Positions 17,001-37,397 of a DNA stretch of 37,397 nt are shown here, in pieces; the stretch's first letter is position 1; every line of letters starts with the position of its first letter. The notes under the pieces were generated by a model. It saw nothing but the letters and a program-made list of their open reading frames with translations. It had not been told where the DNA came from and searched no databases. A program made the translations under genes and the position numbers. Origin of the DNA: a virus; the IMG/VR virus record IMGVR_UViG_3300042468_000905, positions 1-37,397 of that record, one strand, 5' to 3'.

Positions 17001-20000
17001 CTGTGGCCGAGATGGCCAAGTTGAACAAGGAGCTGACGGATCTCGTAAATAGTAAGGCGATAACTGGAGAGCAGGTCGAATCCATCCGCAAGGCGGCGGC
17101 GGCCGTTGTGACGAACGGCGGGTCACCCGCTGAAGCCATAGCAGCGGTGAAAACCGGTATTGACGCGGCCCTCAAAAGCAACGCCAGGGCGAGCGGAGGC
17201 GCCCCGCCGCCGGGAAAAACGCGAGGGGAGGAGCAGGAAGCGCCTCCCTCAGAAATCCAAGAGACCGCCGGTAAGCAGGACGCGCAGGCCGAGCTCGAAG
17301 GTGCGACGCTTCTCGACGACGTGGAGAACATCGTCACCGAGGCAGAACGCAGTTTGTCTCCAGAGCGCGTCCAGGAGGTCGTCGCTCGTGAGCGTGGCGG
17401 CGTCGGACCCGCAGCAACAGCCCCCGACAAGGTCTCCGGCGCGTCCATCGCCGCGGCGCAGGCCGCCGCGCGCGACGAAATCGTCGCTGACTTGAACCTC
17501 GGGGCTCGTGCAGAGAAAAGCACCGACGAGGTCGTACCTAAGAAGAACAAGCAGCGCGCAAAAGTCGAGGCGAAAGCTGCTGCGAGCCTCAAGAAGCCGC
17601 CGAATAAGCGCATGATCGAGGAGGCAGCTAGCCTCGGGCTCACGCCCGCCGAGGGGGAGACGACTGGCGAACTGCTTTCGCGGATGCGAGCCAAAGACGC
17701 CGATTTGCTTGCGCTTCGCAAGCGCAAGCAACGCATCATCGCGATCGGAGAGCGCCTGAAGGGACCAAAGCCGGCGCCGCTGCCAATGACCGAGGAGGAG
17801 CTCGAGGCCGAGATGGCCCGTTACACAGCAGAGCTCGAGGCGGAGATCGCGGCCGAAGATGCTGCGCGGCAGGACGACGCTGTCGCGGCCAACAACGGTT
17901 CGAAGGAATACATACCGGCAGCGACGAGCAACCCGGACAGCGCCGCCGCGCGTATCGACATGCCGGAGGGCCTCGGGCTCGCACTCAGCCGGTTGATCGA
18001 CGCAGCACAGGAACTGGCGGCTATGGCGAAGATAGCCGATGGGCGCGCTTTGTCCGAAGCACAGCTCGAACGCGTGTACGACGTACTCACCAAGCCGGTT
18101 CTCATCGAGCGGGCCATCAACAACGGTGAGGTGTATGGGGCCGTAGACAAGAAAGGCGGCCCACTAAAGGCTTCCGAAGAACAGGCTAGCATAATCAAAA
18201 CTGCGCTTCGGCGCGTGCGCGACCGCGCGGGTGACAGTCTGTTCGACGCAGCGCGCCAGCGCGTCGTCGAAGACGCTGAAGCCCTGGCGGAGGCGGAGAA
18301 GAACGCGAAGGAGGATCCTCGCGAAGCCGGTGCCATCGTCGCCGACGACATCATAGAGCTGGTGGATTATTTCGAGAGCTTGTCGTCGCCGATCACGACG
18401 ACCGAGCAGTTCGAGAACTTCATCGACTCCGTCGAGGCAGCGCGTATTCTACTGGACCTCACGCCGGCAGACCTCGCGTCGAAAGCGTCCGCCAGCGCGT
18501 TGGCCACCCATATCGAGCAATGGGCTGCCTCGAGGCTAGCGGCAGATCCGGATACGACCGCACCAAACACGCTGGATGCGTTGCAGAAGAACCTGCTAGA
18601 CGTCATGACAGCAGTCGGCAAGGATCCGCGGTTCGCAATCGAGATGAACGTGGCAGCAAACCGCGCCGCGCGCGTGGGGAAGCAGCAGTTCGACGAGGAC
18701 CAGGTATCGGCTAGCTTCCTGGTGGAACTGATCGACGCGTTCAACACGGGTCGGCGCCCGCAGTGGAGCCGCGTGGACACCAGTGCTGCCCGGACGCATA
18801 AGAACCTTCTGGCAGATACCACTGTCGTCAACACGTTCATGTACGACGGCCACCCGCTGTCGCATTACTTGAGCGTGGACCCGGCCAAGCTCTTCAACAC
18901 GATGATCATGCCGGACGGTACTACGCGGATATTCCCGCAAGACCCGGTCGTGCAGCGGGACGAAGCCGAGCGCATCATGGCAATCCCCGACAAGGCAGCG
19001 CGGGACCGAGGCGCCGAGGCGTTGGGGTACGTCGTACCAGCGATGCGCGGCTGGGATGGCACCCGCGAGCAGTTCGAGACGAAGTACAGAACCGTATGGG
19101 CGAAGGCAAAGGCGGCTCAGGCGAGGGCCGGGACTGGACGCGCGTCGCTGGCTGACTGGAACACAGTCGCCGACGCGCGTAACCTGGACGGCTCGCGGGT
19201 GCAGCCCCTGGCACCAGGGCGCCTGCGCATGATGGTCAACACGTTTCTGTCTAGGCTGGCGATCAGACCGACAGTGCACGTGTACCGCAATCAGGCCGAC
19301 CTGAGACAGCGGGCGCCGGACATCTACGCCCGCGCGAAGAGCGCCGACCCAGACCCGACCCGGTTCGACACCGCACGGACGGCAGGCTACATGTTCGATG
19401 GCGATCAGGTGATCGTGTTCTCGGACAACATCGCCAACGAGCAGCATCTTCAGTTCGTTTTGGCACACGAGATCCTCGGCCACGTCGGGCTGCGCGGGTT
19501 CATGCCGGGGACCGACTTCGACGCGCTAATGGACGACGTGTACGTGCGCGACCGGGTCGTGCGTGATCTCGTCGATGCGCGTATGCAATCGCAGCCGGGA
19601 CGGACGCGTAGCGAGCTCACGGAGGAGTACCTCGCGGACCACGCGGGACACCTTGCGGTCAGCACCATGGCGCGGATCTGGAAGGCCATCAAGGGACTGC
19701 TGAACAAGTTGGGAATGCGGTTCGGTGACGAATCGGCGCGCTACGTCCTCGATCAGTCGCGTCGATATGTCCGGTACGGAGTTCGTGCGTCGCGGTTCGA
19801 CGCACAGGCTGTCGGCCACCGGATGATCCAGGTAGCGGCCGGCGCCACACCGGGAGCGGGTCGGTATTCCACTGTCGGCGAGTTCATGACGACCAACGAG
19901 CGCCTCGCCTCGATGCTCTTCGACCAGGGCAAGTGGTGGGAGGGCAACTGGTTGCAGACGGCGCTCACTACCGCACGCGATGCCACAACCAATTTCGGCG

Positions 20001-23000
20001 CGACGTGGGACGCGTTCAAGGCGCGGTTCCTGTCGCTCTCGAACTTCCGCTCGCTCGAGAACGCCGGTATGGCGGAATCCGTTCGCTTGTATGGAATGAC
20101 CAACCAAAAGGCACAGGCTGTACTGCGCGACGCTAACGACAGGCTCGAGCGCCTGTATGACGCCAACTCTGCCGATCGCGACATGTTCTCGCAGATGCTG
20201 TACCACACGCGACTGGCGGCATCCGAGCGGTTCAGGCCGCGCGACTGGACCAAGCCGCTGGTCGTGATAGACGACGAGACGGGCCAGATAACGCCAGACG
20301 CCGAGGAGATCCGCAAGCTCGTGGACGCCGGCACGCTGACATACGAACAGCTTCGCGACGGATTTGAGTATACTGCTGCACGTACGGGTCTGGACATCGA
20401 CCCGAAGACAGGCAAGCCCGTTGTCGAGAATGTCACGCGCAAGTCGCCGGCGTTTCCCAAGCTCACCAAGGAGCAGTACGAGGTATATCGGCAGACCCGC
20501 GAGACGGTCGCACATGTCGAGGTGCAGTTCCTGGCTGCGCGCATCACCGAGGCGTATGAGAACCGTCGTGTCACGTTCGACGGACTCGAGGGCCTGTTCG
20601 CGACCGGCAAGGTGGATCGTGAGAGCCGCCGCGTCATCGGTGCTCTCACGAATATCTACACCGCCGCGTATGCTGCTGGTATCGACTTCGACGACCGCGG
20701 CGTACCGAAGTTCGACCGCGCGTCTCAACGCCGCGCCGAAGAGTTCCTCGTCGCCATCAACCAGGCATTCATCGTTCGTGAGATCGATGGCGCCGAAGCT
20801 GACAAGCGTATCGATGTGCTGCGCGACTTCCTCGCCCGGGTGGAGGGTCTCGATCCCGCATACGCCGCGCGGTTGGTGCAGGACTTCAAGGCCATGTTGC
20901 GTCGGCGCCGGAACATCGCTCCTCGCGACGCCGACCCCGAGCGGTTCGCTCTTCAGAACGCCATCAAGCGCGTCAACATGGTGGACCTACCGAGCGAAGA
21001 CGCGCAGCGCATGGCCCGGCAGACGATCGGATCCGGGTATGCACCGTTCCTCCGCGACGGTAAGTTCGAGCTTCGTATCGAGGCCGTAGGCGCAGACGGC
21101 AAGCGGGTACGCCTGCATCCGGACCACAGGGCGCTGCTCACGTATTCGCAGTTCGACACGCGCAGCGAAGCCGTCAACGGCGCCAACGCGATGAACGAGG
21201 TCCTCAAGACCATGAAGGTCGAAGTCCTCGCGATGTCGGATACGTCGCCGGGCGGGTGGCAGCGTACCGAGGTTACGCTGCGCGCTCAGGCGGGGGTACC
21301 CGTCGACGCCATCGCGGCCGATCCGCAGCTTAACCTGAACGAGTTCATGTACGGGCTCAACCTGTTCGGTATCGACCTGCATCCAAGCAAGCGCGAGCAG
21401 ATCGTGCGGACGCTGTCGAAGCAGAACGCCAACGCCCGGCGGCGGTTGTTGTTCAGCGGCAACCCGGGCGTCGACCCCAACTCGCTGGTGATGGCTCTGT
21501 CGAAGCACCTCGAGGCCCGGGCGTCGCAGATCGCCAAGGCGCTGACACGTACGCAGCTGCGGGAACTGCTCAACCTCGATAACCCGCGGAGCCGGCGCTT
21601 GTGGAGCGGCGACTACGTAGGTGTCACACAGGCGTTTGCCGCTGTGCGTAACGCAGCGAACCCCGCAGCGCGTAATCTGGCGCAATGGGAGCTCGACCGG
21701 CAGCTGTACATGTACGTCACTAGCAACCCTGGCGCCGCCGGCTGGACTGGAGATCCGGCCACGCTGCCGCAATTCGAGGAAGCGGCCGCGTCCGACGTGA
21801 AGGAGGGGAACAAGTACTACAACGAGACGGCGCGTACTCAGGAGCTGATGGAGTCGCACCAGACGGTCGACGATGCGCTGGGCACTCCGGTTGAGAAGAT
21901 CCGTAGCTTGACCAGCATCATCTCGTTGGCCGGATCGATAGCTAACGGCGGGCTTAACCTGATATCGCCTTACACCAACTGGATGCCGTTCATGGCGTCG
22001 TACAATGCCAAGAACGGCTTTGGTGGTGGGTTCGCGCTGTCGGACGTCGTCGTCGAGTACGAACGGGCCGCCATGCAAGTCGGGTTGGTCAAGGCGTTGC
22101 GCCTGGGCAGCGACCTGGAAAGCGCCCCGTACTACGAACGTGTCGCTCGCGACCCTGCGCTGATGAAAGAGCGCGGTCTTACGCGCCATGAGGCGCTTGC
22201 GATGGCGCAAGAGATCAGGGCCGGCAAACTCATTCCGGCGCAGACGAACGCGATGGTCGCGACCAGTGCAGGAAGCATGTTCGGTGCGAACGCCACGACG
22301 CGTCGGATCGTCGACACGATCATGGTGCCGTTCAACCGGACGGAGCAGGCTGCGCGCAGGAGTGCGTTTCTCGCAGCCTACCGTATGCACTATGCCAAAG
22401 TCATAGCCGCTACCGACGGGAGTGCAGAGGCCGCGGAGGTGGCAGCCAACGCCGCGCGCGAGTTCGCAGCGACCAGCCTGGACCTGACGCTCGGTGAGTA
22501 CTCTCTGCTCAACCGTCCGCTGTTCTGGCGCTACGGCCCGCTGTCTCTGCTGTACATGTTCAAGGTATACCCGACGACGGTGATCCAGTTGCTGGCGAAC
22601 CTGTCGCCCAAAGCGCAGCTGGCTATGCTGCTGTCGCTGTGGATGCTGGCTGGTCTCGAAGGGTTGCCCTTCGCGGAAGACCTCGAGGACATGGTCGACA
22701 CGCTGGCTCAGAAGATCGGACCCATGGTCGGTATTCAGCAGCCCTCAGTCCGCGCCGTGGTCGCCCGCGCCGTCGAGGACATAGCCCCGGGTCTGTCCCC
22801 CCTCATCCTGCGTGGCGCGCTCACGTTCGCCATGCCGGACTATGGTGCGGCCGGTGCACGGCTGAGCCTCGGTGACCTCGTACCTGGCACGGGTATGTTT
22901 CTCGCCGGCTCGAAGCCGTGGGAGGAGTTCAAGGACATCGCCGGTCCTGCGGGCTCCGTGATCACCGGCGTCGGCGCGTCGCTCTTCGACACGTTGAAGC

Positions 23001-23518
23001 TGCCGTTCGCCGCGGATAAGCCGCAGGCCCTCGTCGACATCATGCGTGAAAGCCCCGTCACGATGATGCGCGCCCTTGGGGACGGGCTGGCGTACCACAG
23101 CAGCGGTGCCGTCGTGGACAGGCGCGGCTACGTCGTGCACCCGGAGGCCGACGCGATGACCATCGCTTCGCGGCTCATGGGGTTCTACCCGTTCAAGGCT
23201 GCGGAACAGTACCAGCTGATCAAGTATCAGAAGCGCGTGGTCGACTTCCAGCGGGAGATCACGACGTCATTCCGCGTCCAGTGGATAAAGGCCAAGATGC
23301 GTGAAGACGAAGCCGCCGCCGAGGCGATCGTGGCAGCCGTCAACCGCTGGAACGAAGGCGCCGCCGGGACTGCGCTCGAGATACGCTCGTTTGTGCGGAA
23401 CTCGGTAATTGCGTTGCGCGAGGCACGTCGCCCCGCCGGCGAACGTGCACTGCGGACGACCCCGATCGCAGGACGCGAGGACATCGGCGCCTTGTTCGAG
23501 GCCATCACCATCAACTAA
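14006..23518 (+). CDS. Giant 3170-aa polyvalent virion protein with zincin-like and LPD38-like regions
   Basis: Starts at GTG with AGGAGG 6 nt upstream. Residues ~190-220 and ~364-382 are Gly/Ala-rich hydrophobic segments of the membrane-active type seen in ejection proteins. Residues ~430-845 are low-complexity, ending in a Pro-Glu-Ala tract (~811-841). Three exact 16-aa repeats lie at ~943-990. Residues 1821-1826 are HEILGH, a HExxH zinc-metallopeptidase motif; the acidic TEEYLADHAG (~1872-1881) may supply the third ligand. Residues ~2730-2800 (MVPFNRTEQAARRSAFLAAYR) resemble large-polyvalent-protein domain LPD38, followed by a hydrophobic stretch at ~2835-2890. Such proteins are packaged and injected, and may process the envelope or host proteins. 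A second gene is nested at 16254-16415. Confidence 0.75.
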   Translation: MSDIHNPGTPVGTPAASGLGGLATPVLDAGRQLGLRPPAGPATQPSGGAWYSPGANKMYMAGQVFDPEDARYAIGLMGQIDAPAPPPPDAVAPDWQPLSREQYGEYIGKLRERRGVLANVGLGARSVAEGLVGGAGRILEYAGATGAGQGLAGFAERAFGQSEAEQARSALISESNSLWGNVWDAVYQGAPSMFATVLGGVGGAAGLAAGAARLGMAARGVNAARNAGGFAGAAAINFPMAMQSAYKEAESRNYDMADPRVMNEVLALAVTSTILNSFVEAGAGKMLSTGFKELTKQTTRTALNNAVWGGLRGGIGEFATEALDQLIMSAWFDDDVRKTLSAGDIKALGPLVAERYGRDALIAGGAGAILGAGLGGAANYRRTTAPIEVEPKDLLGERLVGKTFEDAQESFYEEEAGPSRVIPSRGARTPEEAAAAAGETLDRGRPPLPPAPTPDQSAVLAGESTAGLRLTPLPEAPLPEAPLLLPPPGAAPLRRGQDDTGSGGVESRIVGYTADGSPIIEFGPEPMPPWSVAGKPYTPTGVGAVPVSETRGWSNFDLRTPRLPGEPVVPAPGTFGYDETREKLEAARQQMMAEARGRDFSALEGRDPVFQQLHDALRTAEERQRLADRLESERQQMMAKAHDRAALTRLSEAPPTQAELLFRSQDPFGTSEMQAPTQAELLFGSQAPFVVPAPEGQLPAIYAPPERAAQPIPDRMPAVYTRAPGEAPPVYAGAPGEMPALPPPIPGVTDAIQVEGTAPIPARNAPEIGGGVGAQVSGEEQAPGARTLQKQGTKKGTGGKEPLKKKAASAPEPTPAPAPEPAPAPEPAPAPAPEPEPEPAAARADGAVKALTAQITSATKTVNDFAAQVQKTTKVSQRSMLVAQLRKAIEVLDPLVNPEDELTLDRVPDDVVEAGRRAVSDAGVLVASPRPETEASTATEAPAPAAPKDGTLRARTTAAPAAPKDGTLRARTTAAPAAPKDGTLRARTTAAPAAAEETPVAEMAKLNKELTDLVNSKAITGEQVESIRKAAAAVVTNGGSPAEAIAAVKTGIDAALKSNARASGGAPPPGKTRGEEQEAPPSEIQETAGKQDAQAELEGATLLDDVENIVTEAERSLSPERVQEVVARERGGVGPAATAPDKVSGASIAAAQAAARDEIVADLNLGARAEKSTDEVVPKKNKQRAKVEAKAAASLKKPPNKRMIEEAASLGLTPAEGETTGELLSRMRAKDADLLALRKRKQRIIAIGERLKGPKPAPLPMTEEELEAEMARYTAELEAEIAAEDAARQDDAVAANNGSKEYIPAATSNPDSAAARIDMPEGLGLALSRLIDAAQELAAMAKIADGRALSEAQLERVYDVLTKPVLIERAINNGEVYGAVDKKGGPLKASEEQASIIKTALRRVRDRAGDSLFDAARQRVVEDAEALAEAEKNAKEDPREAGAIVADDIIELVDYFESLSSPITTTEQFENFIDSVEAARILLDLTPADLASKASASALATHIEQWAASRLAADPDTTAPNTLDALQKNLLDVMTAVGKDPRFAIEMNVAANRAARVGKQQFDEDQVSASFLVELIDAFNTGRRPQWSRVDTSAARTHKNLLADTTVVNTFMYDGHPLSHYLSVDPAKLFNTMIMPDGTTRIFPQDPVVQRDEAERIMAIPDKAARDRGAEALGYVVPAMRGWDGTREQFETKYRTVWAKAKAAQARAGTGRASLADWNTVADARNLDGSRVQPLAPGRLRMMVNTFLSRLAIRPTVHVYRNQADLRQRAPDIYARAKSADPDPTRFDTARTAGYMFDGDQVIVFSDNIANEQHLQFVLAHEILGHVGLRGFMPGTDFDALMDDVYVRDRVVRDLVDARMQSQPGRTRSELTEEYLADHAGHLAVSTMARIWKAIKGLLNKLGMRFGDESARYVLDQSRRYVRYGVRASRFDAQAVGHRMIQVAAGATPGAGRYSTVGEFMTTNERLASMLFDQGKWWEGNWLQTALTTARDATTNFGATWDAFKARFLSLSNFRSLENAGMAESVRLYGMTNQKAQAVLRDANDRLERLYDANSADRDMFSQMLYHTRLAASERFRPRDWTKPLVVIDDETGQITPDAEEIRKLVDAGTLTYEQLRDGFEYTAARTGLDIDPKTGKPVVENVTRKSPAFPKLTKEQYEVYRQTRETVAHVEVQFLAARITEAYENRRVTFDGLEGLFATGKVDRESRRVIGALTNIYTAAYAAGIDFDDRGVPKFDRASQRRAEEFLVAINQAFIVREIDGAEADKRIDVLRDFLARVEGLDPAYAARLVQDFKAMLRRRRNIAPRDADPERFALQNAIKRVNMVDLPSEDAQRMARQTIGSGYAPFLRDGKFELRIEAVGADGKRVRLHPDHRALLTYSQFDTRSEAVNGANAMNEVLKTMKVEVLAMSDTSPGGWQRTEVTLRAQAGVPVDAIAADPQLNLNEFMYGLNLFGIDLHPSKREQIVRTLSKQNANARRRLLFSGNPGVDPNSLVMALSKHLEARASQIAKALTRTQLRELLNLDNPRSRRLWSGDYVGVTQAFAAVRNAANPAARNLAQWELDRQLYMYVTSNPGAAGWTGDPATLPQFEEAAASDVKEGNKYYNETARTQELMESHQTVDDALGTPVEKIRSLTSIISLAGSIANGGLNLISPYTNWMPFMASYNAKNGFGGGFALSDVVVEYERAAMQVGLVKALRLGSDLESAPYYERVARDPALMKERGLTRHEALAMAQEIRAGKLIPAQTNAMVATSAGSMFGANATTRRIVDTIMVPFNRTEQAARRSAFLAAYRMHYAKVIAATDGSAEAAEVAANAAREFAATSLDLTLGEYSLLNRPLFWRYGPLSLLYMFKVYPTTVIQLLANLSPKAQLAMLLSLWMLAGLEGLPFAEDLEDMVDTLAQKIGPMVGIQQPSVRAVVARAVEDIAPGLSPLILRGALTFAMPDYGAAGARLSLGDLVPGTGMFLAGSKPWEEFKDIAGPAGSVITGVGASLFDTLKLPFAADKPQALVDIMRESPVTMMRALGDGLAYHSSGAVVDRRGYVVHPEADAMTIASRLMGFYPFKAAEQYQLIKYQKRVVDFQREITTSFRVQWIKAKMREDEAAAEAIVAAVNRWNEGAAGTALEIRSFVRNSVIALREARRPAGERALRTTPIAGREDIGALFEAITIN
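16243..16247 (+). promoter_or_regulatory. Shine-Dalgarno sequence for the nested gene at 16254
   Basis: AGGAG, with 6 nt (TGACCG) to an ATG that is out of frame with the surrounding giant gene. A well-placed ribosome binding site in the middle of a long coding region supports internal translation of the nested frame. Confidence 0.55.
16254..16415 (+). CDS. Nested small gene, MPFKSKAQR family, inside the giant ORF (+1 frame)
   Basis: 53 aa, entirely within 14006-23518 but in the +1 frame, with AGGAG 6 nt before its ATG. The peptide starts MPFKSKAQRRYLHATHP and continues LAAEWERKYPVKSKLPEHV with a basic tail. 'MPFKSKAQ+rylha..P.lA..we+k.p....LP' is a pattern I recognise from many short, usually free-standing tailed-phage proteins of unknown function; it is basic and may contact nucleic acid. 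In the giant protein's own frame the same DNA encodes only a low-complexity linker (about residues 751-803), which suggests this frame is the constrained one. Family assignment is from memory, not a search. Confidence 0.65.
   Translation: MPFKSKAQRRYLHATHPRLAAEWERKYPVKSKLPEHVPSKNKEPRKGQAVRSR
16832..16975 (+). repeat. Three exact tandem 48-bp repeats in the giant gene
   Basis: Units at 16832-16879, 16880-16927 and 16928-16975 are identical at DNA level, and a partial fourth begins at 16976. Each encodes APAAPKDGTLRARTTA in the linker of the giant virion protein. Exact identity, including third positions, points to recent slippage or unequal recombination, and copy number is likely to vary between isolates. 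Confidence 0.95.
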
Positions 23519-29859: not shown

Positions 29860-30182
29860 GAGTCCTCGCCTCCTCCGACGCCTGCTCTCTTACGGATGTA
29901 CTCTACGGCAACGTCGATAGTGTCATCGTCGTATACCAGAAACACTGTAGCACCCGCAAGTCGCATCCGGTTCATCGTCGCGATCTGCACACGCGTCGGC
30001 TTCTTGGTCGCATTTGCCTTGCACTCGATAGCGACGAGATGCCCACGCACAAGGACCAGTCGGTCCGGCACCCCCGAGCGGCCGAACGGCCCAGCCTGCG
30101 GCGCGTACGACCAGACGTCGATGTGAAGCTGGTTCAGCTTAGCTTCCAACCGGCGCTTGATGCGCCCTTCCGGTGTGGTCAT
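29853..30182 (-). CDS. VRR-NUC domain nuclease
   Basis: 109 aa, a complete stand-alone VRR-NUC protein. Visible signatures: the N-terminal helix with Glu5 (PEGRIKRRLEAKLNQLH), GRSGVPDRLVLVRGHLVAIECKA with the catalytic PD...ExK set (Asp at SGVPD and Glu-Cys-Lys at IECKA), and a Q-x5-MRLAGATVFLVYD tail that is typical of the family. Such nucleases cut branched DNA such as Holliday junctions or flaps. Overlap with the SNF2 helicase gene suggests joint action in resolving replication intermediates (inference). Confidence 0.9.
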   Translation of the reverse strand: MTTPEGRIKRRLEAKLNQLHIDVWSYAPQAGPFGRSGVPDRLVLVRGHLVAIECKANATKKPTRVQIATMNRMRLAGATVFLVYDDDTIDVAVEYIRKRAGVGGGEDSC

Positions 30183-30188
30183 GATCGC

Positions 30189-30845
30189 TTACTCCGCGTC
30201 GGGGCACAGGTGACGGGCTGGGCACCATCTGCACAGCCTGCTCGGTCTGGCGGGCCATTGGTCGATGGACGCCGCATGCTCGACGCGTTCGATCTTCGCC
30301 ATCAGTCGGCCGCGCATGGCGTCGAAGCTAGACCTCGGGTACCAGTCCGAGTCGATGGCCATCTCCCGCAGCCAGACGAACGCGGTGTACGTGCGCCGCA
30401 CTTCGGGATGCACGGTCATGAGCACCAGGGAGAACAGCTCCAGCTGGTCCTGATCGACGACGCGCTTGCCCGTCTTCCAGTCGATGACGAGGCCGACACC
30501 GCCGCCGATGATACTGGCGTCGAGCTTTGCACGGAGCCACGCGTCAGGCGAATACCACCCTGTCACAGCCCAGGTGCGCGTCAACGCGACCTCACGCTCC
30601 GCCGTCGCGCCCCGCGCTTTCAGCATGTCGAGGACGTGCTTGATCGGTACGAGCTCATCCGGGACGACGTCGTGCTCGCCCCGGAGGTACTTCTCGATCT
30701 TCGCGTGCACGCGTTCGCCGTATGCTGAAGCGGCAGACCCAGGATCAGGAAGCCGCGGGCGGCGCAGACGCTGGAACCAGTACCGCTTCGGGCACTGCTC
30801 GAACAGCTTCAGCGTCGAGTACGAGTGGGTAAGTTCGTAGTTCAT
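30189..30845 (-). CDS. Cas4/RecB-like PD-(D/E)XK exonuclease with four-Cys cluster
   Basis: 218 aa from the ATG at 30845 (ATGA overlap with the deaminase stop); the longer frame upstream is out-of-frame. Cys18 (LFEQCPKRYWFQR) and the C-terminal Cys205, Cys208 and Cys214 (CRWCPARHLC) form the arrangement that binds a 4Fe-4S cluster in Cas4, AddB and Dna2-type nucleases. Nuclease motifs: GERVHAKIEKYL (His), RAKLDAS (Asp), VIDWKTGK (Asp-x-Lys) and QLELFSL. A role in DNA end processing or recombination is inferred. No CRISPR array or cas1/cas2 is nearby, so it is not part of a CRISPR adaptation module. Confidence 0.85.
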   Translation of the reverse strand: MNYELTHSYSTLKLFEQCPKRYWFQRLRRPRLPDPGSAASAYGERVHAKIEKYLRGEHDVVPDELVPIKHVLDMLKARGATAEREVALTRTWAVTGWYSPDAWLRAKLDASIIGGGVGLVIDWKTGKRVVDQDQLELFSLVLMTVHPEVRRTYTAFVWLREMAIDSDWYPRSSFDAMRGRLMAKIERVEHAASIDQWPARPSRLCRWCPARHLCPDAE

Positions 30846-31273
30846 TCCACGACCTCCAGAGACACGTCCGCTTCGTGCAACATCGCCGCAGCCACGTCGA
30901 ACTCTTCCGAGGGCATGCTGGTCGTACCCGTCGAGACGAAGACACGACGCACCCCCGCCTGGATCAGCATCCGAGCGCATCTCGAGCATGGGTGGTGCGT
31001 CACGAAGGCATACGTATCAGCAAGGGCCACACCCTCGCGAGCCGCCTGTGCGACGGCATTCTCCTCTGCGTGGCTCGTCCACAGGTACTTGGCCGGGCGC
31101 TCCATGCGCTCGGGCAGATCAAGGACCCTCCGCGGGAGCCCGTTGTATCCTGTCGCCAGGACAGTGCGCTCGATTCCGACGATGACACACCCGACCTTCG
31201 TCGACGGGTCCTTCGACCACGTCGATACGGTACGCGCCAACTCGATGAATCGCTCGATCCACTTGTTGCTCAT
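30842..31273 (-). CDS. Deoxycytidylate (dCMP) deaminase
   Basis: 143 aa from the ATG at 31273 (ATGA overlap with the polymerase stop). Zinc-dependent deaminase motifs are intact: His68-Ala-Glu70 (TSHAEENAVAQ) and Pro95-Cys96-x-x-Cys99 (HHPCSRCA). DPSTKVGCVIVG and ATGYNGLPR are typical of the dCMP deaminase/ComEB group rather than cytidine deaminases. It converts dCMP to dUMP, feeding dTTP synthesis during phage replication. No thymidylate synthase is visible in the window, so the host enzyme probably completes the path. Confidence 0.9.
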   Translation of the reverse strand: MSNKWIERFIELARTVSTWSKDPSTKVGCVIVGIERTVLATGYNGLPRRVLDLPERMERPAKYLWTSHAEENAVAQAAREGVALADTYAFVTHHPCSRCARMLIQAGVRRVFVSTGTTSMPSEEFDVAAAMLHEADVSLEVVE

Positions 31274-33177
31274 TTGCAATCTCCATACGTCTTGCCCGCG
31301 CCAACCGAGCAGGCGAGAGGAAGCGTCGGCGCCCAGTGCGGCGGCGCCGACATGATCATCCTGACGTCGTGCTTCGCCTCCTCGACATCCGCGTCCGGCA
31401 CACACAGCACGTTCTCGTCGTGGACCTGTAGCACGACAGGCCACTTCTTCGACAGCGCCAGCAACTGCGTCGTGACGACGATGCGCGACAACGCCTGGAT
31501 GACGTTCTCCGTGACCTTGCCACCATGCAGCGGCGTCATGCGGTGGTACGGGATCTCCTCATTGCGGCTCACCGCATTGATTACGTCGCGATACACACGG
31601 TTATCGCCAGCGTAGTACCACTGGGCTCCGCGCGAGCCGGCGAGCTGAGCTGAACGCAGCAGCGGGTACTTGATGTCGAGACCGTTGGGCAAGGTAATGC
31701 CCCGCGTACTCGTGGTCAGCTCGTCGTGCAGCACGGCGTCCGACAAGGGGGTCTTGTCGCCGTGGCTCATGGCCGCCAACGCGTCCGCGCACCGGCGCCA
31801 GAACCGAGCGATGCGCCAGTACGTGGAGCGGTACAGATGCACGATGTTACGCGCCTCGGCCTCGTCGAGTACGACCTTGACCCCGCCAAGACCGATCTCG
31901 AGCGTCTGCCGAAACCGGTCATGACCCATGCCGTAACCCAAGCCGAGAATGCAGGTCTTGCCGACGTGCCGTTCGATTACGTCCGCCCTTGTTATGGTCC
32001 GACCGTAGATGCGAGACGCGAAATCGCAGTACACGTCCTTCCCGTCGCGGAACGCGTTGAGCAGATCGTCCTGGCCGGAGACCCAGGCCAGCATCCGCGC
32101 CTCGATCTGTGCACTGTCGCCTGCGACAAGCGTGTGTCCCGGCGGGGCCTTGATCGCCTTGCGCAGAGTACCCCCGCGTCGAAGGTTCTGGAGATTGATC
32201 TTGTCGCCACCACTGAGCCGCCCAGTATGCGCGCCGTAGTAGTTCAGCATCACCGGCAACGAGCCACGGTCGGCAACACCAAGAAGTCTCTTGGTGCGCG
32301 TCTCCTCGATCGTCGAGCGAACGCCCAGGCGCGCAGAGACAAGTTCCGCCACGACGGGGTTCTCGTGGTTGAGCAGATCCATGAACGACGTGTTGCTCTT
32401 GTTGAACCCGTATCTCATCTCGCCGGTCGCCTTGCTGCGCTCCATAGGCGGGTCGATGCCGACGAACCTCAGCATCTCGGCAAACTTGTCGTTGCTCTGG
32501 AGCATGTCCTTGGCGTCATCGCTGTCACCAAGCCCGAGGTTCTCGAGCGTGGTATTCTTGCGCGCAATGGTCTCCTCGAGATGCTTGCGAAGCGTCAACG
32601 CGTCGAGCTCGAGGCGCGGCTCGGTGAACATCCGAATTACCTTGTCGATGAGCATGAGCTCGGACGCGGGCATCGTACGCGACAAGAGCCGAAACAGCTT
32701 GTACGTCAACTCGACGTCGTTCTTGCAGTACTTACCGTACTGCGTAAGAGCCTGCGGTGAGAAGTCGCCGCGGCGCATGCCGATGGCCTGCACCACTTCG
32801 GTCCCCTTCTCGCCGAGCTGGAAATGACGGGCGAGCGCAGACAGAGACCCCCCGACGTCGACCCGATAATGCGGCCGCGCCATGGACAACGTATCCAGCC
32901 AGAGCGCGGGCTTGATCCCGTAGCGCCAACTCAGTATGGCCCCATCGAACCACGTGTTGTGCGCGAGGATCGCCCGCTTGGAGTAGTCCATCGAATGCAG
33001 GAACTTGCGGATCAGGTCGTCGTCGCCGGTGCACCAGTCCGCAGGATGGTCGTTGATCTTGACCCCCACACCGATCACCTCGAACCTGGGATCGCGGATA
33101 TACTGCTCGGTCGTGATCCGCGACAGCGAGTACTCGCGATCGTAGAACGTCTCGAAGTCGATGGTTACTATGTCCAT
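31270..33177 (-). CDS. Family A DNA polymerase with 3'-5' exonuclease domain
   Basis: 635 aa. Exonuclease motifs: Exo I DFETF (Asp7, Glu9), Exo II AHNTWFDGAIL, Exo III YGKYCKND. Polymerase motif A is AGDSAQIEARM (Asp354), motif B ERHVGKTCILGLGYG (Lys407 to Tyr415-Gly416), motif C VLQVHDEN (His586-Asp587-Glu588). There is no 5'-3' exonuclease domain, as in T7-type polymerases. The residue aligned with E. coli Phe762 is Leu411. Replicates the phage genome together with the primase-helicase and SSB-like protein. The ATG is preceded by a GGAGGGG-type ribosome site inside the preceding gene. Confidence 0.95.
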   Translation of the reverse strand: MDIVTIDFETFYDREYSLSRITTEQYIRDPRFEVIGVGVKINDHPADWCTGDDDLIRKFLHSMDYSKRAILAHNTWFDGAILSWRYGIKPALWLDTLSMARPHYRVDVGGSLSALARHFQLGEKGTEVVQAIGMRRGDFSPQALTQYGKYCKNDVELTYKLFRLLSRTMPASELMLIDKVIRMFTEPRLELDALTLRKHLEETIARKNTTLENLGLGDSDDAKDMLQSNDKFAEMLRFVGIDPPMERSKATGEMRYGFNKSNTSFMDLLNHENPVVAELVSARLGVRSTIEETRTKRLLGVADRGSLPVMLNYYGAHTGRLSGGDKINLQNLRRGGTLRKAIKAPPGHTLVAGDSAQIEARMLAWVSGQDDLLNAFRDGKDVYCDFASRIYGRTITRADVIERHVGKTCILGLGYGMGHDRFRQTLEIGLGGVKVVLDEAEARNIVHLYRSTYWRIARFWRRCADALAAMSHGDKTPLSDAVLHDELTTSTRGITLPNGLDIKYPLLRSAQLAGSRGAQWYYAGDNRVYRDVINAVSRNEEIPYHRMTPLHGGKVTENVIQALSRIVVTTQLLALSKKWPVVLQVHDENVLCVPDADVEEAKHDVRMIMSAPPHWAPTLPLACSVGAGKTYGDCK

Positions 33178-33548
33178 GACACCCCTCCTAGAGTGCGGTT
33201 GTGTATCGTCGTGTTGCGCATCTGTACGTGGCGCTCACGCAGCGAACGCGGATCATCCTCGTACCGCACCCCAGTGCGGTTGGCAAGTCGCGCCCACAAT
33301 GCCTCGCTCGCCGCAACCGACGCGGCATGCTCGACCTCGCTTGTATGCGGGACGACAACGCGTAAATACATCCGCTGGTTGACGCGGAACACGCGTATCC
33401 TGGGCTCCCGCTTGATCGTCCGGACTGCGATCATGAGCGCGGGATACGCGCACTTCAGCTCTGCACCGACCTCGACCAGCGGCGCCGACAGAGTATCCCG
33501 CGATCGCAGCAATGCGACCACGCGGCTGTACAGTTCATCGCTTGACAT
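33168..33548 (-). CDS. Probable winged-helix-like DNA-binding protein
   Basis: 126 aa from the ATG at 33548 (GGGAG upstream); it ends 10 nt inside the polymerase start. Residues 1-65 (SSDELYSRVVALLRSRDTLS-PLVEVGAELKCAYPALMIAVRTIKREPRIRVFRVN) look like a winged helix: three short helices followed by a strand pair ending in RMYLRVVVP. The rest is Ala/Arg-rich and helical (VEHAASVAASEALWARL). Immediately upstream of the polymerase gene in the operon; a regulator or replication accessory factor is possible. No family recognised with confidence. Confidence 0.6.
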   Translation of the reverse strand: MSSDELYSRVVALLRSRDTLSAPLVEVGAELKCAYPALMIAVRTIKREPRIRVFRVNQRMYLRVVVPHTSEVEHAASVAASEALWARLANRTGVRYEDDPRSLRERHVQMRNTTIHNRTLGGVSWT

Positions 33549-33732
33549 GGCACTCCCACCAAACGAGTTTTCTGGTCGGCGCACTGAGCGCGAGAGACGC
33601 CCGAAGAGTGACAGCCTGCGCCTCACACGCTTTCAGGGTAGCGACGCGTTCAACATGCCCGTGACACACCCGGCGCTGCGGCGGGTCGATCGCGCACAGA
33701 AACCCGATGAACAGGACCTCGACGCCGCTCAT
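33535..33732 (-). CDS. Hypothetical 65-aa protein
   Basis: ATG at 33732 in an ATGA overlap with the previous ORF; its 3' end overlaps the next gene by 14 nt. The N-terminus is hydrophobic (VEVLFIGFLCAID), then PPQRRVCHGHVERVATLKACEAQ with Cys and His that could bind a metal but in no recognised order. The C-terminal part is basic (RKLVWWECHVKR). Reading frame and overlaps support a real gene; no function can be assigned. Confidence 0.5.
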   Translation of the reverse strand: MSGVEVLFIGFLCAIDPPQRRVCHGHVERVATLKACEAQAVTLRASLALSAPTRKLVWWECHVKR

Positions 33733-33956
33733 GGCTTCCCCTTTTCGTAGAAGTGGCAACTCCGTACTGGATACTTGTTGTCGCGATAAATGTCGCCTCC
33801 GAGTGGCTTGTTCCATGGCGTGCCCGCCCACCACTTGACCGCCGGCAGCTTGGGCATTTCTGGGTTTGGAACTTCGCAGAATCCAACCCCCGTCAGCCGA
33901 CCGTTTCGACGCGTCCACTCCGCATAACGACACGATAGGCATAGATGTGCGCTCAT
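33729..33956 (-). CDS. Small Cys-rich protein, probable zinc-binding
   Basis: 75 aa from the ATG at 33956 (ATGA overlap). Cys6-x2-Cys9 (LCLSCRYAEW), then Cys27 (GVGFCEVPNP) and a C-terminal Cys (YPVRSCHFYEKGKP) give four cysteines able to bind zinc. Between them is a Trp/Pro/Asn-rich stretch (WWAGTPWNKPLGGDIYRDN). I have seen the 'C..Ca.........gvC.........p.v....C..f' pattern in short phage proteins without a known role. It is part of the coupled run of small early genes. Confidence 0.55.
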   Translation of the reverse strand: MSAHLCLSCRYAEWTRRNGRLTGVGFCEVPNPEMPKLPAVKWWAGTPWNKPLGGDIYRDNKYPVRSCHFYEKGKP

Positions 33957-34279
33957 GGCTTGGCCTCCAGTGCGGCGCGGGATGTTTTCCTGTCCCATGC
34001 CTCCAAGGTGCGGCGGCGGATCTCAACAAGCGCCTCGTGCTCGCTCAATCCGGCCGTTCCGCCGGTATGCGCGATCGCCGCTATTGCTTGCGCGTCGCCG
34101 CGCAGTCGCTCAATCTCGGCCCACAGCGCGGCGCGGTCGCGGGTCAGCTGCTCGATCTCGGTCAGCAGCCACGCGCGGTCTTTGTGCGTCTGAACACGGT
34201 CGGTCAGCGACTGCTGATATACCTCCGTCGCGGCATGCCGCGCGCGGATCTCCGCGATCTCTGCGGGATACTTGACCAT
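33953..34279 (-). CDS. Small coiled-coil protein, unknown function
   Basis: 108 aa from the ATG at 34279 (TAATG overlap with the previous stop). Residues ~15-70 form a long charged helix (IAEIRARHAATEVYQQSL, AWLLTEIEQLTRDRAALWAE, IERLRGDAQAI) with heptad spacing, followed by a short second helix (EHEALVEIRRRTLEAWDRK). No motif for enzyme activity. Likely an oligomerising accessory factor; its place in the small early genes suggests a host-interaction role, but nothing more can be said. Confidence 0.55.
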   Translation of the reverse strand: MVKYPAEIAEIRARHAATEVYQQSLTDRVQTHKDRAWLLTEIEQLTRDRAALWAEIERLRGDAQAIAAIAHTGGTAGLSEHEALVEIRRRTLEAWDRKTSRAALEAKP

Positions 34280-34647
34280 TATTCGCTCCTCGTGAAAATC
34301 GACCGCACCGGGTCGTTGTGGTCGGGCCAGCACTCGACCTCGGAAACGCCGAGCGACGCGCCGCCCTTCGGGCCGTAGAGCGACACGAGCCGCTCCTCGG
34401 AATTGTTCTGCCGCATCCCGTGCAGCAAATACTCTGCGTCCTCGCGACGCGAAAACGTGTAACGTCCTTGCGCGGGGAACGCGAGCCGTCGCGTCCCGTC
34501 GCCCGCGTCGAAGGTGATGACGTAGCGCGCGTTCATGTGGGCCTCCCGTGATTTACACCAGCGACAGATGAAGCCGGTACGCGTCGCGAACGCGAGCACG
34601 CTGTACTCGTTGTCGCATTTCCTGCACACGCGCCTGGCTTTGGTCAT
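34279..34647 (-). CDS. Zinc-ribbon protein, 122 aa, with a possible internal start
   Basis: ATG at 34647 in an ATGA overlap. The N-terminal ~37 residues hold two CxxC pairs (RVCRKCDNEYSV and GFICRWCKSREA), a zinc ribbon. The C-terminal ~85 residues (ARYVITFDAGDGTRRLAFPA, YTFSRREDAEYLLHGMRQNN) form a separate small alpha/beta unit. An internal ATG at 34536 has GGGAGG 6 nt before it, so an 85-aa product lacking the zinc ribbon could also be made. Either a two-domain protein or two products from one frame. Function unknown. Confidence 0.55.
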   Translation of the reverse strand: MTKARRVCRKCDNEYSVLAFATRTGFICRWCKSREAHMNARYVITFDAGDGTRRLAFPAQGRYTFSRREDAEYLLHGMRQNNSEERLVSLYGPKGGASLGVSEVECWPDHNDPVRSIFTRSE

Positions 34648-34826
34648 CGTCCGTCCTCCGCTTCGACAAGGATCAGCCCCGCGTTCTCGGCGTTGGCGAT
34701 GAAGAACACCTGTCGGGTGATCTCCAGCTCCTTTGCGTTTGGCGACAGGTAGGTATCCCATAGCGTACCGTACCGGTTGCGCGCAAGGCGCTCGGCAAGC
34801 TCACGACGTCTGCTGGACACGTTCAT
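34644..34826 (-). CDS. Hypothetical 60-aa protein
   Basis: ATG at 34826 overlaps the preceding stop (ATGA), and its stop overlaps the next ATG in the same way. Basic helical N-terminus (SSRRRELAERLARNRYGTLW) and an acidic C-terminal part (VFFIANAENAGLILVEAEDG) with short strands. No membrane segment or known motif. Supported by its coupled position rather than by recognised similarity. Confidence 0.5.
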   Translation of the reverse strand: MNVSSRRRELAERLARNRYGTLWDTYLSPNAKELEITRQVFFIANAENAGLILVEAEDGR

Positions 34827-35038
34827 CGGTTGGCACTCCTATATCTACGAATCGTCCTGCGTACGCTGAAGATCGAACTATCATCGCGTCGGTGCGGCGC
34901 CGAGTGGTTGCTGCCTATGATGATCGTAGGCTGGCCGACCACGTGGAGCTTCACGTGGTCGGAGTACTCGACGATGCGCCACGCATCTCGCGGTAGCTCT
35001 GCATCGACCATGGCAAGGATGCGTTTGTCTACACGCAT
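34823..35038 (-). CDS. Small protein, weakly HicA-like
   Basis: 71 aa from the ATG at 35038. After a helix (VDKRILAMVDAELP) comes RDAWRIVEYSDHVKLHVVGQ, PTIIIGSNHSAPHRRDDSS and FSVRRTIRRYRS. The order helix - 'W.iv...hvkl.v.g...ii..' strands - basic helix recalls the small double-stranded-RNA-binding-like fold of HicA-type and related phage proteins. The usual HicA catalytic His context is not clear and no HicB partner is adjacent, so this is not a toxin-antitoxin call. Overlaps both neighbours. Confidence 0.5.
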   Translation of the reverse strand: MRVDKRILAMVDAELPRDAWRIVEYSDHVKLHVVGQPTIIIGSNHSAPHRRDDSSIFSVRRTIRRYRSANR

Positions 35039-35337
35039 GGCCTGTCATCCGTACCGCCGCCGCGTTTGACGTACGCCATGAGGAACATGATGCAGCAAAG
35101 CGCGTGGGCGAGATGCGACAGACCTGTCTCCTGGTCACGGTCCTCGCCCATCCACCACGCCCACAGGTGCCGCATGGCAGCGGAATATGGCCGATGCCAC
35201 GCCATGCCCTTCTCCCAGTTCCGGGGGCCGTATTTCGCCGCCCCGAACTCGAGCACGGCCAGCACCTCCTGAATAACGTCACCTGGCAGCAGATGCCATG
35301 GGAGTTTACCGTTGTCGTCTTTGCGTCCTTCGGTCAT
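35029..35337 (-). CDS. dATP/dGTP hydrolase-like protein (DUF5664, MazG-like)
   Basis: 102 aa from the ATG at 35337, which has ACGGAG 6 nt upstream; a GTG at 35352 in a GTGA overlap would add 5 residues. Conserved features of the phage DUF5664 group are visible: KDDNGKLPWHLLPGDVIQEV, LEFGAAKYGPRNWEKGM, RHLWAWWMGEDRDQETGLSH and HALCCIMFLMAY. These all-helical proteins are MazG-like and are annotated as dATP/dGTP diphosphohydrolases; E-x-G and E/D-rich helices would hold metal. It may trim host dNTP pools or shift their balance. No PurZ-type gene is present, so a Z-genome is not indicated. Confidence 0.7.
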   Translation of the reverse strand: MTEGRKDDNGKLPWHLLPGDVIQEVLAVLEFGAAKYGPRNWEKGMAWHRPYSAAMRHLWAWWMGEDRDQETGLSHLAHALCCIMFLMAYVKRGGGTDDRPCV

Positions 35338-35348
35338 AGCGCACTCCG

Positions 35349-36149
35349 TCACTTGTGGTCAGAATACACGCCCGCCAAGCGGCGAACGTCGGAACCGTTC
35401 TTCTTGAGCAAGGCGTCGAACTGCATGAGGTATTGCTGCGTCGTGAGCGGCGCATTGCTGTGTCGACTGAGCAGGTGTTCCAGACGTCGCAACGTCAAGT
35501 CGTCGAGAGCACAATCGCGAATGCTACCCCACATAAAAGCCGCCTCTTGACGAGGCAGCCAGAAACTGACGTCGAGAGCGCGATACGCCGCAACTGGGTC
35601 CTGACGCCGCTGGGTGCCTATGCCCTCGAACACCGACAGACGTATGCGCAACTGGATCTGGTCGCGCCACGCCCGGCGCAAGATCGTGAGCCTCTGCATG
35701 GCCGCTTTGTCCATCCGATCGCGCAGCGGAGGCAGCGAGTTGAGGAACTTGCCGTTCCGAATGTCGAGCCGCAAGCCATCCGCCAGCTCTGCGCGTACGG
35801 ACGCGGCGTCGTAGCCCAGCCAAAACCTGCTCCCCCGGGAGATCCGGTCGACCCATGTGTGCATGATTGCTCGAGGCGCTACGAGAGCCGCGATAGCCAC
35901 CTCGTACTCGTTGCGCATGCTAAACGTGATGACGTCGTCCGGCGACCACGTGAACACGACGTCACCCACCTGACGGACCGCTCGCTTAGCGGCGCTGAAG
36001 TTGGGTTGCATGAAGAAGAACGTGCCGGTGTCATCCACGCGGACCGAAGTGCGCGGGTTGAACATGCTGATGGGGCGCGGTCGCGGTCGTCCATCCCACC
36101 GCGCCTTGATGTCTGCGTAGTTCTTGATCAGTCTCGGACCTAGTGCCAT
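35349..36149 (-). CDS. First gene of the early operon, 266 aa, unknown function
   Basis: ATG at 36149 preceded by AGAAGGA and, 28 nt further up, the likely transcription start of the sigma70 promoter at 36184-36212. A basic N-terminus (IKARWDGRPRPRPISMFNPR) is followed by FFFMQPNFSAAKRAVRQVGD, VVFTWSPDDVITFSMRNEYE and GSRFWLGYDAASVRAELADG. The C-terminal half is helical with many Arg and Leu (LTILRRAWRDQIQLRIRLSV, LDDLTLRRLEHLLSRHSNAP). No known domain. Being the first gene behind the strongest visible promoter suggests an early host-takeover or regulatory role (inference). Confidence 0.7.
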   Translation of the reverse strand: MALGPRLIKNYADIKARWDGRPRPRPISMFNPRTSVRVDDTGTFFFMQPNFSAAKRAVRQVGDVVFTWSPDDVITFSMRNEYEVAIAALVAPRAIMHTWVDRISRGSRFWLGYDAASVRAELADGLRLDIRNGKFLNSLPPLRDRMDKAAMQRLTILRRAWRDQIQLRIRLSVFEGIGTQRRQDPVAAYRALDVSFWLPRQEAAFMWGSIRDCALDDLTLRRLEHLLSRHSNAPLTTQQYLMQFDALLKKNGSDVRRLAGVYSDHK

Positions 36150-36183
36150 GTCGAATATCCTTCTGGTTTGAGGTTTACGTTAC

Positions 36184-36212
36184 CGTATATCACACTACCC
36201 GTGCCGAGTCAA
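36184..36212 (-). promoter_or_regulatory. Sigma70-type promoter of the early/replication operon
   Basis: On the minus strand TTGACT (36212-36207; 5 of 6 to consensus) is separated by exactly 17 nt from TATACG (36189-36184; 4 of 6). The expected start is near 36177, leaving a ~28-nt leader with a Shine-Dalgarno before the ATG at 36149. The element lies over the last codons of the upstream glycine-rich gene. It marks the border between the glycine-rich array and the replication operon and implies host RNA polymerase use. Confidence 0.65.
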
Positions 36213-36444
36213 ACGTACCAGGTTTCGGCAAGGGCCATAGCTGCGCAAAGTGCCCACGTATGTGTTGGTAGTTGTATGTCGTGTGGACCCACGAACGCTT
36301 ACTAGGCATGCCAGATACGTTGCCTCCGCTAGAGTTGCCGTACATGTGCCCGTATCCGTACCCGTCGCCGAATCCCGTATTTATGACAGCCTGAGCGTGC
36401 ATGAAGTACCCATCGCAAAGCGCAAATATACGTACTACCGCCAT
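36190..36444 (-). CDS. Glycine-rich array member F (divergent)
   Basis: 84 aa; ATG at 36444 with GGGAGGG 7 nt upstream, overlapping member E by 10 nt. The N-terminus VVRIFALCDGYFMHAQAV keeps the array pattern (hydrophobic strand, one Cys, x-Gly-x-aromatic), then a short GFGDGYGYGHMYGN tract. Unlike the others it has a non-glycine tail (SKRSWVHTTYNYQHIRGHF, then LWPLPKPG) and few Gly. It is last in the array in transcription order, and its end carries the early promoter. Function unknown. Confidence 0.6.
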   Translation of the reverse strand: MAVVRIFALCDGYFMHAQAVINTGFGDGYGYGHMYGNSSGGNVSGMPSKRSWVHTTYNYQHIRGHFAQLWPLPKPGTFDSARVV

Positions 36445-36638
36445 AGCAAATCCCTCCCGTTGCTGGTGTCGTATCGCCTGCTGTTACCGGCGCCTCTGCC
36501 GCTGCCGTAGCGATCGCCGCCGCCATCACCTCTCCCGTTGCTGTTGAAGCCGTCGCCATACCCCCAGCCGTCGCCGTAGGGGTACTCGAAGGCGTACTGT
36601 CCGCTGCACACGGCGAACACGTTTACAGTAACGCTCAT
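36435..36638 (-). CDS. Glycine-rich array member E
   Basis: 67 aa from the second of two adjacent ATGs (36638), which lies 5 nt behind GGGAGG; the first (36641) would be only 2 nt away. Starts MSVTVNVFAVCSGQYAFEYP, then a Gly/Asp/Tyr tail (GDGWGYGDGFNSNGRG, GGDRYGSGRGAG) and an Arg/Asn-rich end. Last codons (NGRDLLWR) contain the Shine-Dalgarno of member F. Single conserved Cys at position 11. No known function. Confidence 0.65.
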   Translation of the reverse strand: MSVTVNVFAVCSGQYAFEYPYGDGWGYGDGFNSNGRGDGGGDRYGSGRGAGNSRRYDTSNGRDLLWR

Positions 36639-36871
36639 CATGACCTCCCGTCACCATCGCGACGGCCGCAGCCGTAACCGTCGCCGTCGCCGTCGCCGTT
36701 GCCGTGGCTGCCGCCGTCGCCGAAGCCGTAATCGCCGTCGCCCCGGCCACCGCCGCCACCGCCGCCACCGATGCCCCAACCGTCGCCGTAGCCGCTGCCG
36801 TTAGGACGCCTCGGGACGTCGTGCGCGAACCGCCCCCCGCACACGGCGAACACGTTTATGGTAACGCTCAT
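36638..36871 (-). CDS. Glycine-rich array member D
   Basis: 77 aa, ATG at 36871 in an ATGA overlap with member C, GGAGG 6 nt upstream inside the end of C. Starts MSVTINVFAVCGGRFAHDVP, followed by GYGDGWGIGGGGGGGGRGDG, and a run of GDG/GNG units up to a Cys-containing end (GYGCGRRDGDGRS). More than half of the residues are Gly or Asp. The N-terminal block is far better conserved between members than the tails, which suggests the head is functional and the tails evolve by slippage. Confidence 0.7.
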   Translation of the reverse strand: MSVTINVFAVCGGRFAHDVPRRPNGSGYGDGWGIGGGGGGGGRGDGDYGFGDGGSHGNGDGDGDGYGCGRRDGDGRS

Positions 36872-37134
36872 GTCGAGCCTCCGTCGCCGCCGCCGGTGCC
36901 GAAGCCGTCGCCATCGCCGAAGCCGCTACCGGTAAAACGCGGGGTGCCGTAGCCGCTGCCGCCACCGCCGCCACCGCCGCCGCTACTGCCCTTGCCGTAG
37001 CCCCAACCACTGCCCCAGCCGCTGCCGTAACCCCAGCCGATGCCGTTGCCGCTGGTGCTGGCGACAGGACGTGCGAGGATGCGAAACGCGAACCGCCCCT
37101 CGCACACGCCGAACACGTTTACGGTGACGCTCAT
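36868..37134 (-). CDS. Glycine-rich array member C
   Basis: 88 aa from the second of two ATGs (37134; the first is 37137), overlapping the stop of the truncated member B by 1 nt. Starts MSVTVNVFGVCEGRFAFRIL, then a GIGWGYGSGWGSGWGYGKG segment, an eight-Gly run, YGTPRFTGSGFGDGDG and GGGDGGST. The last codons GDGGST encode the GGAGG Shine-Dalgarno of member D. Its tail is nearly identical to that of member A, a sign of recent duplication. Function unknown. Confidence 0.7.
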   Translation of the reverse strand: MSVTVNVFGVCEGRFAFRILARPVASTSGNGIGWGYGSGWGSGWGYGKGSSGGGGGGGGSGYGTPRFTGSGFGDGDGFGTGGGDGGST

Positions 37135-37181
37135 CATAACCCCCCACCGCACACGCCGAACACGTTTGCGGTAACGCTCAT
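37134..37181 (-). pseudogene. Glycine-rich array member B, truncated to 15 codons
   Basis: ATG at 37181 with GGAGG 6 nt upstream. The frame reads MSVTANVFGVCGGGL and stops, so the conserved head is kept but the glycine tail is lost. It overlaps member A (ATGA) and member C (TGATG). Either a decayed copy from unequal recombination, or a leader that passes ribosomes from A to C. The preserved head and signals argue that it may still be translated. Confidence 0.55.
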
Positions 37182-37397
37182 GTCGAGCCTCCGTCGCCGC
37201 CGCCGGTGCCGTAGCCGCGGCCATCGCCGAAGCCGCTACCGGTAAAACGCGGGGTGCCGTAGCCGCTGCCGCCACCGCCGCCACCGCCGCCGATACCGCC
37301 GCCGCTGCCCCAGCCGTTGCCGCGATCGTTGGCGCCGGTAATACGACCCAAGGCGTTGAGCACGAACCGACCCCCGCACACGCCGAACACGTTTACA
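37178..37397 (-). CDS. Glycine-rich array member A (start outside window)
   Basis: The frame is open to the window edge; the first visible residues VNVFGVCGGRFVLNALGRI match the conserved array head, so only the initial MSVT-type codons are missing. A Gly-rich tail follows (GNGWGSGGGIGGGGGGGGSG, YGTPRFTGSGFGDGRG, GGGDGGST). The array may continue beyond the window. Confidence 0.65.
   Translation of the reverse strand, partial: VNVFGVCGGRFVLNALGRITGANDRGNGWGSGGGIGGGGGGGGSGYGTPRFTGSGFGDGRGYGTGGGDGGST

What the first reader, a model, noticed from the sequence alone, without database searches (positions are those of the whole stretch)
36190..37397. Tandem, translationally coupled family of glycine-rich single-Cys proteins
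Six adjacent minus-strand frames share a head (MSVT-V-N-V-F-A/G-V-C-x-G-x-F or a divergent form) and then a Gly/Asp/Tyr-rich low-complexity tail. Every junction overlaps by 1-10 nt, and the tail end of each gene (for example GDGGST) encodes the Shine-Dalgarno of the next. The head is conserved while tails drift, so this is not simple DNA repeat noise. Short phage proteins with an 'FA(I/L/V)CDG' head and GYG/GDG tails are, as far as I recall, known only as hypotheticals; a multi-copy coupled array suggests selection for dosage or for variant production. Possible roles are a self-assembling or condensate-forming protein set, or a small modified peptide family. All roles are inference.
Basis: partly seen in the sequence, partly recalled or inferred. 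Interest (0 to 1): 0.75.

Follow-up and report, generated by a model that had tools for sequence, protein, structure and literature searches.

The report
Tandem glycine-repeat small phage genes
A fragment of an uncultured phage ends in a row of at least six overlapping small genes, copies of one another, that look translated and mostly encode a short conserved start plus a glycine-rich, probably unfolded tail; the family was found nowhere else, but single genes of similar design occur in unrelated phages, and what the proteins do is unknown.

Summary
The array is real. Six minus-strand frames lie head to tail at 36190-37397: the first is cut by the contig end, the second is a 15-residue head with no tail, the last is divergent. 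All junctions overlap (4 or 1 nt; the last 10 nt). GGAGG occurs five times in the array, four of them just before a start, so translation is likely; codon scores agree but weakly. The head was found only in this record: profile, DNA-pattern and tblastn searches gave no relative. A profile search of 31 related phage records found none, and in syntenic relatives the downstream neighbour directly follows a different gene, so the array looks lineage-specific. Tails are predominantly Gly-X, with very low AlphaFold confidence. They are themselves coding DNA repeats, and copies arose by unequal tandem duplication. Four unrelated phages carry single genes of similar design (unrelated short head plus (Gly-X)n). 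In Rheinheimera phages the tail varies in 6-nt steps while the head is identical and the flanks nearly so. That makes an in-frame coding repeat the best-supported account of how the tails evolve. The function proposed (a low-complexity, self-associating protein set) is inference only; a nearly neutral repeat is a close rival.

The parts
37178..37397 (-). m1: member cut by contig end; head VNVFGVCGGRF + Gly-X tail ending GDGGST
37134..37181 (-). m2: 15-aa head-only copy MSVTANVFGVCGGGL*, probable deletion remnant
36868..37134 (-). m3: 88-aa member (alternative ATG at 37137)
36638..36871 (-). m4: 77-aa member, two Cys
36435..36638 (-). m5: 67-aa member (alternative ATG at 36641)
36190..36444 (-). 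m6: 84-aa divergent member MAVVRIFALCDGYF..., short Gly-X stretch, non-Gly C-terminus
37188..37192 (-). GGAGG, 6 nt before m2 ATG, inside the end of m1
37140..37145 (-). GGGGGG, weaker Shine-Dalgarno-like run before m3, inside m2
36878..36882 (-). GGAGG, 6 nt before m4 ATG, inside the end of m3
36644..36648 (-). GGAGG before m5 (5 nt to its second ATG), inside the end of m4
36453..36457 (-). GGAGG, 8 nt before m6 ATG, inside the end of m5
37138..37300 (-). 163-nt duplicated block (tail end + next head), 94% identical to 36828-36990
36828..36990 (-). other copy of the 163-nt block
35349..36149 (-). downstream neighbour, 266 aa, unknown function; diverged homologs in 6 of 31 related phage records, none preceded by a Gly-rich array in the six regions read
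35029..35352 (-). next gene, dATP/dGTP diphosphohydrolase (PF18909)

Best explanation
A lineage-specific set of small phage genes, encoded just upstream of nucleotide-metabolism and replication genes. One ancestral gene (short hydrophobic head with a Cys, then a Gly-X tail) was copied in tandem by unequal recombination between its own repeats. Each stop overlaps the next start, and the tail's last codons supply the next ribosome-binding site, so one mRNA probably yields several variants (suggested by sequence, not shown). The tail is a coding repeat whose units are multiples of three bases, so gains and losses keep the frame. The proteins are probably disordered, and aromatic residues spaced among Gly/Ser/Asp suggest weak self-association. 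I infer that they act as a non-enzymatic, low-complexity protein set (a condensate or matrix in the infected cell), with the head as anchor and copy number setting the dose. The function step is inference.
For: Overlapping junctions with GGAGG at four of five starts; m6 homologous but diverged, with head pN below pS; predicted frame best on its strand in all six members; GxG spacing exceeds shuffles in m1, m3, m4, m5 and marginally in m6; duplicated block spanning tail and next head, with a head-only remnant; mean pLDDT 42.7; profile finds nothing in 31 related records and no Gly-rich frame sits at the syntenic place; similarly built single genes in four unrelated phages, with 6-nt tail polymorphism beside an invariant head in Rheinheimera phages.
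Against: No expression data. Only one genome has the family, so selection on heads cannot be tested across relatives. Tail substitutions show no protein-level constraint beyond the Gly-X pattern. Codon support is weak and two members score slightly better in a plus-strand frame. Window tails are less regular than those of the other phages (longest alternating run 5-11 units against 21-44). Low pLDDT from five similar rows does not prove disorder. Self-association is untested.
Confidence: 0.45

Rival explanations
1. Nearly neutral coding minisatellite: one small gene with a GGC-NNC repeat tail expanded by recombination and slippage; it is translated because each copy inherits a start and ribosome-binding site, and has little or no function.
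For: Tail change looks repeat-driven (m1/m3 pN 0.20, pS 0.16); truncated copy m2; no homolog in relatives; no family match.
Against: GGAGG positioned at four starts; m6 head diverged with pN below pS; a gene of similar design is kept in 115 Rheinheimera phage records, head identical in the seven examined.
Confidence: 0.33
2. DNA- or RNA-level element: the repeated GC-rich sequence itself matters (recombination, protein binding or transcript structure) and the frames are incidental.
For: In comparator phages the tails use GGC-NAC units against local codon habit (Barba31A: GGC is 32 of 36 Gly codons in the tail, 10 of 70 in neighbouring genes).
Against: Positioned ribosome-binding sites and stop/start overlaps at the junctions; no Rfam match in 30000-37397; in the window itself the codon bias is modest.
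Confidence: 0.12
3. Modified-peptide (RiPP-like) precursor set: head as leader, Gly-rich core modified as in microcin B17.
For: Several precursors with a conserved head and a variable Gly-rich remainder.
Against: The core lacks the Cys-rich sites of azole peptides (the Cys is in the head; one extra in m4); no modification enzyme was recognised among the proteins scanned, but no systematic search was made and genes beyond 37397 are unseen.
Confidence: 0.04

Closest known systems
Rheinheimera phage (Barbavirus) gene QCQ64611.1 and equivalents, 'hypothetical protein'
   Same: Short non-Gly head plus Gly-X tail; in a cluster of small genes between DNA polymerase and an exodeoxyribonuclease gene; tail variable, head invariant in the seven genomes compared.
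   Different: Single copy; strictly alternating G with N/Y/D; unrelated head (MEPESLAIKIT), no Cys; linked by BLAST through GGC-repeat DNA, not through the head.
'Lamprin' UOF81530.1 of a Manatee Spring phage; Rhodobacter phage RcapNL gp46; Pectobacterium phage Pappous XDF89668.1
   Same: Short head plus (Gly-X)n tail; two of them overlap the gene upstream by 17-19 nt.
   Different: Single copies; unrelated heads; 'lamprin' is a name by composition.
Exported-looking Gly/Asn/Tyr-repeat proteins in some Gammaproteobacteria (from my own knowledge they recall sulfur globule envelope proteins)
   Same: (Gly-X)n repeats.
   Different: N-termini look like signal peptides (no predictor run); longer; host genes; no shared head.
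RTX Ca-binding repeats
   Same: Gly/Asp-rich.
   Different: No GGxGxDxUx nonapeptide in any member; no Pfam match.

Membership tests
Phage small (Gly-X)n-tail proteins (descriptive group made here, not an established family) | short non-Gly head followed by a tail with Gly at alternate positions | tested here: met
   GxG excess over shuffles in m1, m3, m4, m5 (P <= 0.001), marginal in m6 (0.046); not applicable to the tail-less m2
Phage small (Gly-X)n-tail proteins (descriptive group made here, not an established family) | homologous head | tested here: not met
   profile comparison with RcapNL gp46 aligned only the low-complexity tail; other heads differ by eye. Hence similar design, no sign of common descent
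RTX repeat proteins | GGxGxDxUx nonapeptides | tested here: not met
   none in any member; no Pfam hit
Sulfur globule envelope proteins | signal peptide for export | tested here: inconclusive
   by eye the members begin MSVTVNVFAVC with no basic n-region or long hydrophobic core; no predictor run
RiPP precursors | modification enzyme nearby | tested here: inconclusive
   none recognised among the few proteins scanned against Pfam and PHROGs; not searched systematically; contig is a fragment
Known Pfam or PHROG families | match above threshold | tested here: not met
   no match better than E 0.14 for any member

The most novel reading that the evidence does not exclude
Phages of unrelated lineages repeatedly evolve small proteins with a fixed head and an in-frame, fast-varying Gly-X tail; the window's phage goes further, with a coupled multi-copy array that makes several variants at once. 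The common use would be a phage-made condensate or host-directed low-complexity effector whose tail length and copy number tune activity.
Probability: 0.15. Interest if true: 0.75.

Novelty: new variant of a known kind. Interest (0 to 1): 0.42.

Why it matters
If the proteins are made and matter, they would be a phage-encoded low-complexity protein set whose dose and length can change by simple recombination, and a starting point for asking why unrelated phages carry (Gly-X)n proteins, which in the records read here are annotated only as hypothetical or named by composition. It also shows that such genes can escape homology searches because low-complexity filters hide them.

Tried and rejected
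Single-protein scans of viral contigs with m5, the neighbour gene and the DNA polymerase: nothing. Head DNA patterns: one search gave 14 and two viral stretches, one search gave 37 genome stretches; translated, none had a Gly-rich tail behind the head; one search gave none; one search gave one, which lies antisense to an ssb-like frame. tblastn of members in 50,697 phage records: m6 only weak hits (E about 1 or more), m3 and m5 none; BLAST's low-complexity filter leaves little but the head to match. Profile A2 against 385 and 369 genomes of two proteobacterial classes: one tail-only hit. All these would miss a strongly diverged head. Rfam: none. PDB: one weak low-complexity hit. Promoter scan: none found. 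Literature searches on phage Gly-rich arrays: nothing relevant in the open-access set.

Full report
What is there. The window is a whole virus record of 37,397 bases, classed linear. It begins inside a frame that I read as the capsid gene (by inspection) and ends inside the array, so it is a fragment. On the minus strand 37397-36190 six frames follow each other. m1 is cut by the edge. m2 is a 15-residue head with no tail. m3, m4 and m5 are full (88, 77, 67 aa). m6 (84 aa) has a divergent head and a C-terminal half that is not Gly-rich. Gly makes up 44, 39, 39, 24 and 14% of m1, m3, m4, m5 and m6.

Is it coding? Openness is no evidence, since a GGC-NNC repeat has no stop in any frame. Better evidence: every junction overlaps, and GGAGG occurs five times in 1208 nt, four of them just upstream of starts, a placement that 20,000 random draws did not equal. 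Codon scores add little: the predicted frame is best on its own strand in all six members, but in m2 and m4 a plus-strand frame is slightly better, and scores are mostly below those of long genes. The m6 head resembles the others beyond shuffling, and between m6 and the others head pN (0.39-0.46) is below pS (0.67-0.95). Among m1-m5 there are too few head changes to judge.

How it arose. A 163-nt block covering a tail end and the next head is repeated at 94% identity. m1 and m3 differ mostly in the linker. m2 looks like a head joined to a following junction by a deletion within G-rich sequence (inference). Tail differences show no synonymous excess between m1 and m3. So copies spread by tandem duplication, and tails change as coding repeats.

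Context. The neighbour 35349-36149 has no family match but diverged homologs in six of 31 related records, reached through an alignment of the family A DNA polymerase. In the regions I read, the homolog follows another gene of about 200-230 aa (starting MATVRF in several) and precedes small genes and usually the polymerase, with no Gly-rich frame between. A profile of the members finds nothing in the 31 records. The same profile does find the window's members, but those are the rows it was built from, so this only shows that the search works. In that alignment (A2) I gave m1 the residues MSVT, which lie beyond the window's end and are assumed; A3, used for the structure, has only sequence present in the window. 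The next window gene is a dATP/dGTP diphosphohydrolase. The array is lineage-specific as far as these records show.

Relatives. No homolog of the head was found by any route. A permissive blastn search did reach unrelated phage genes of the same design: Barbavirus MEPESLAIKIT-(GX)n, a Manatee Spring phage gene named lamprin, RcapNL gp46 and a Pappous gene. They were found because of similar GGC repeats, so they show a shared design, not descent; the one head comparison run aligned only the tail. In seven Barbavirus genomes the head is identical and 648 nt of flank differ at no more than two sites from one of them, while the tail varies from 29 to 36 units and in the order of N, Y and D, always in 6-nt steps. 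An equivalent was found in 115 phage records.

An unexplained point. In the Barbavirus, Manatee and Pappous tails nearly all codons end in C (GGC, TAC, GAC, AAC, TCC, TTC), against local usage (for Barba31A GGC is 89% of Gly codons in the tail and 14% in neighbouring genes). Recent repeat expansion or selection for favoured codons could both explain it. The window's own bias is modest, so this does not decide its case.

Structure and function. AlphaFold2 on five rows gave mean pLDDT 42.7 and no secondary structure. With so shallow an alignment this is consistent with disorder but not proof. Aromatic residues spaced in Gly/Ser/Asp suggest weak self-association (inference). I favour a low-complexity, non-enzymatic protein set with dose set by copy number at 0.45, with a nearly neutral coding repeat as a close rival (0.33).

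Limits. One contig, no expression data, repeats in a metagenome assembly, and pattern searches that a diverged head would escape.

Noticed in passing
L163, L164, L165, L172, L188, L189, L190 (Barbavirus Gly-X gene): Tail differs in length (6-nt steps) and in the order of N/Y/D units between phages whose flanks are nearly identical; also strong GGC-NAC codon bias where neighbouring genes are 37% GC.
   Followed up: partly
L173-L187: 12 of 369 gammaproteobacterial genomes hold (G[YN]G[ND])n ORFs whose N-termini look like signal peptides; in L179 two such ORFs lie close together.
   Followed up: partly
window 14006-23518: 3170-aa frame carrying three tandem copies of APAAPKDGTLRARTT at residues about 943, 959 and 975.
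   Followed up: no
window 11569-11666: ARAGORN reports a tRNA with a four-base anticodon inside a protein frame; probably spurious.
   Followed up: no
window 1-605 and 37397: Record starts inside a frame I read as the capsid gene and stops inside the array; several polymerase relatives are 48-59 kb.
   Followed up: partly
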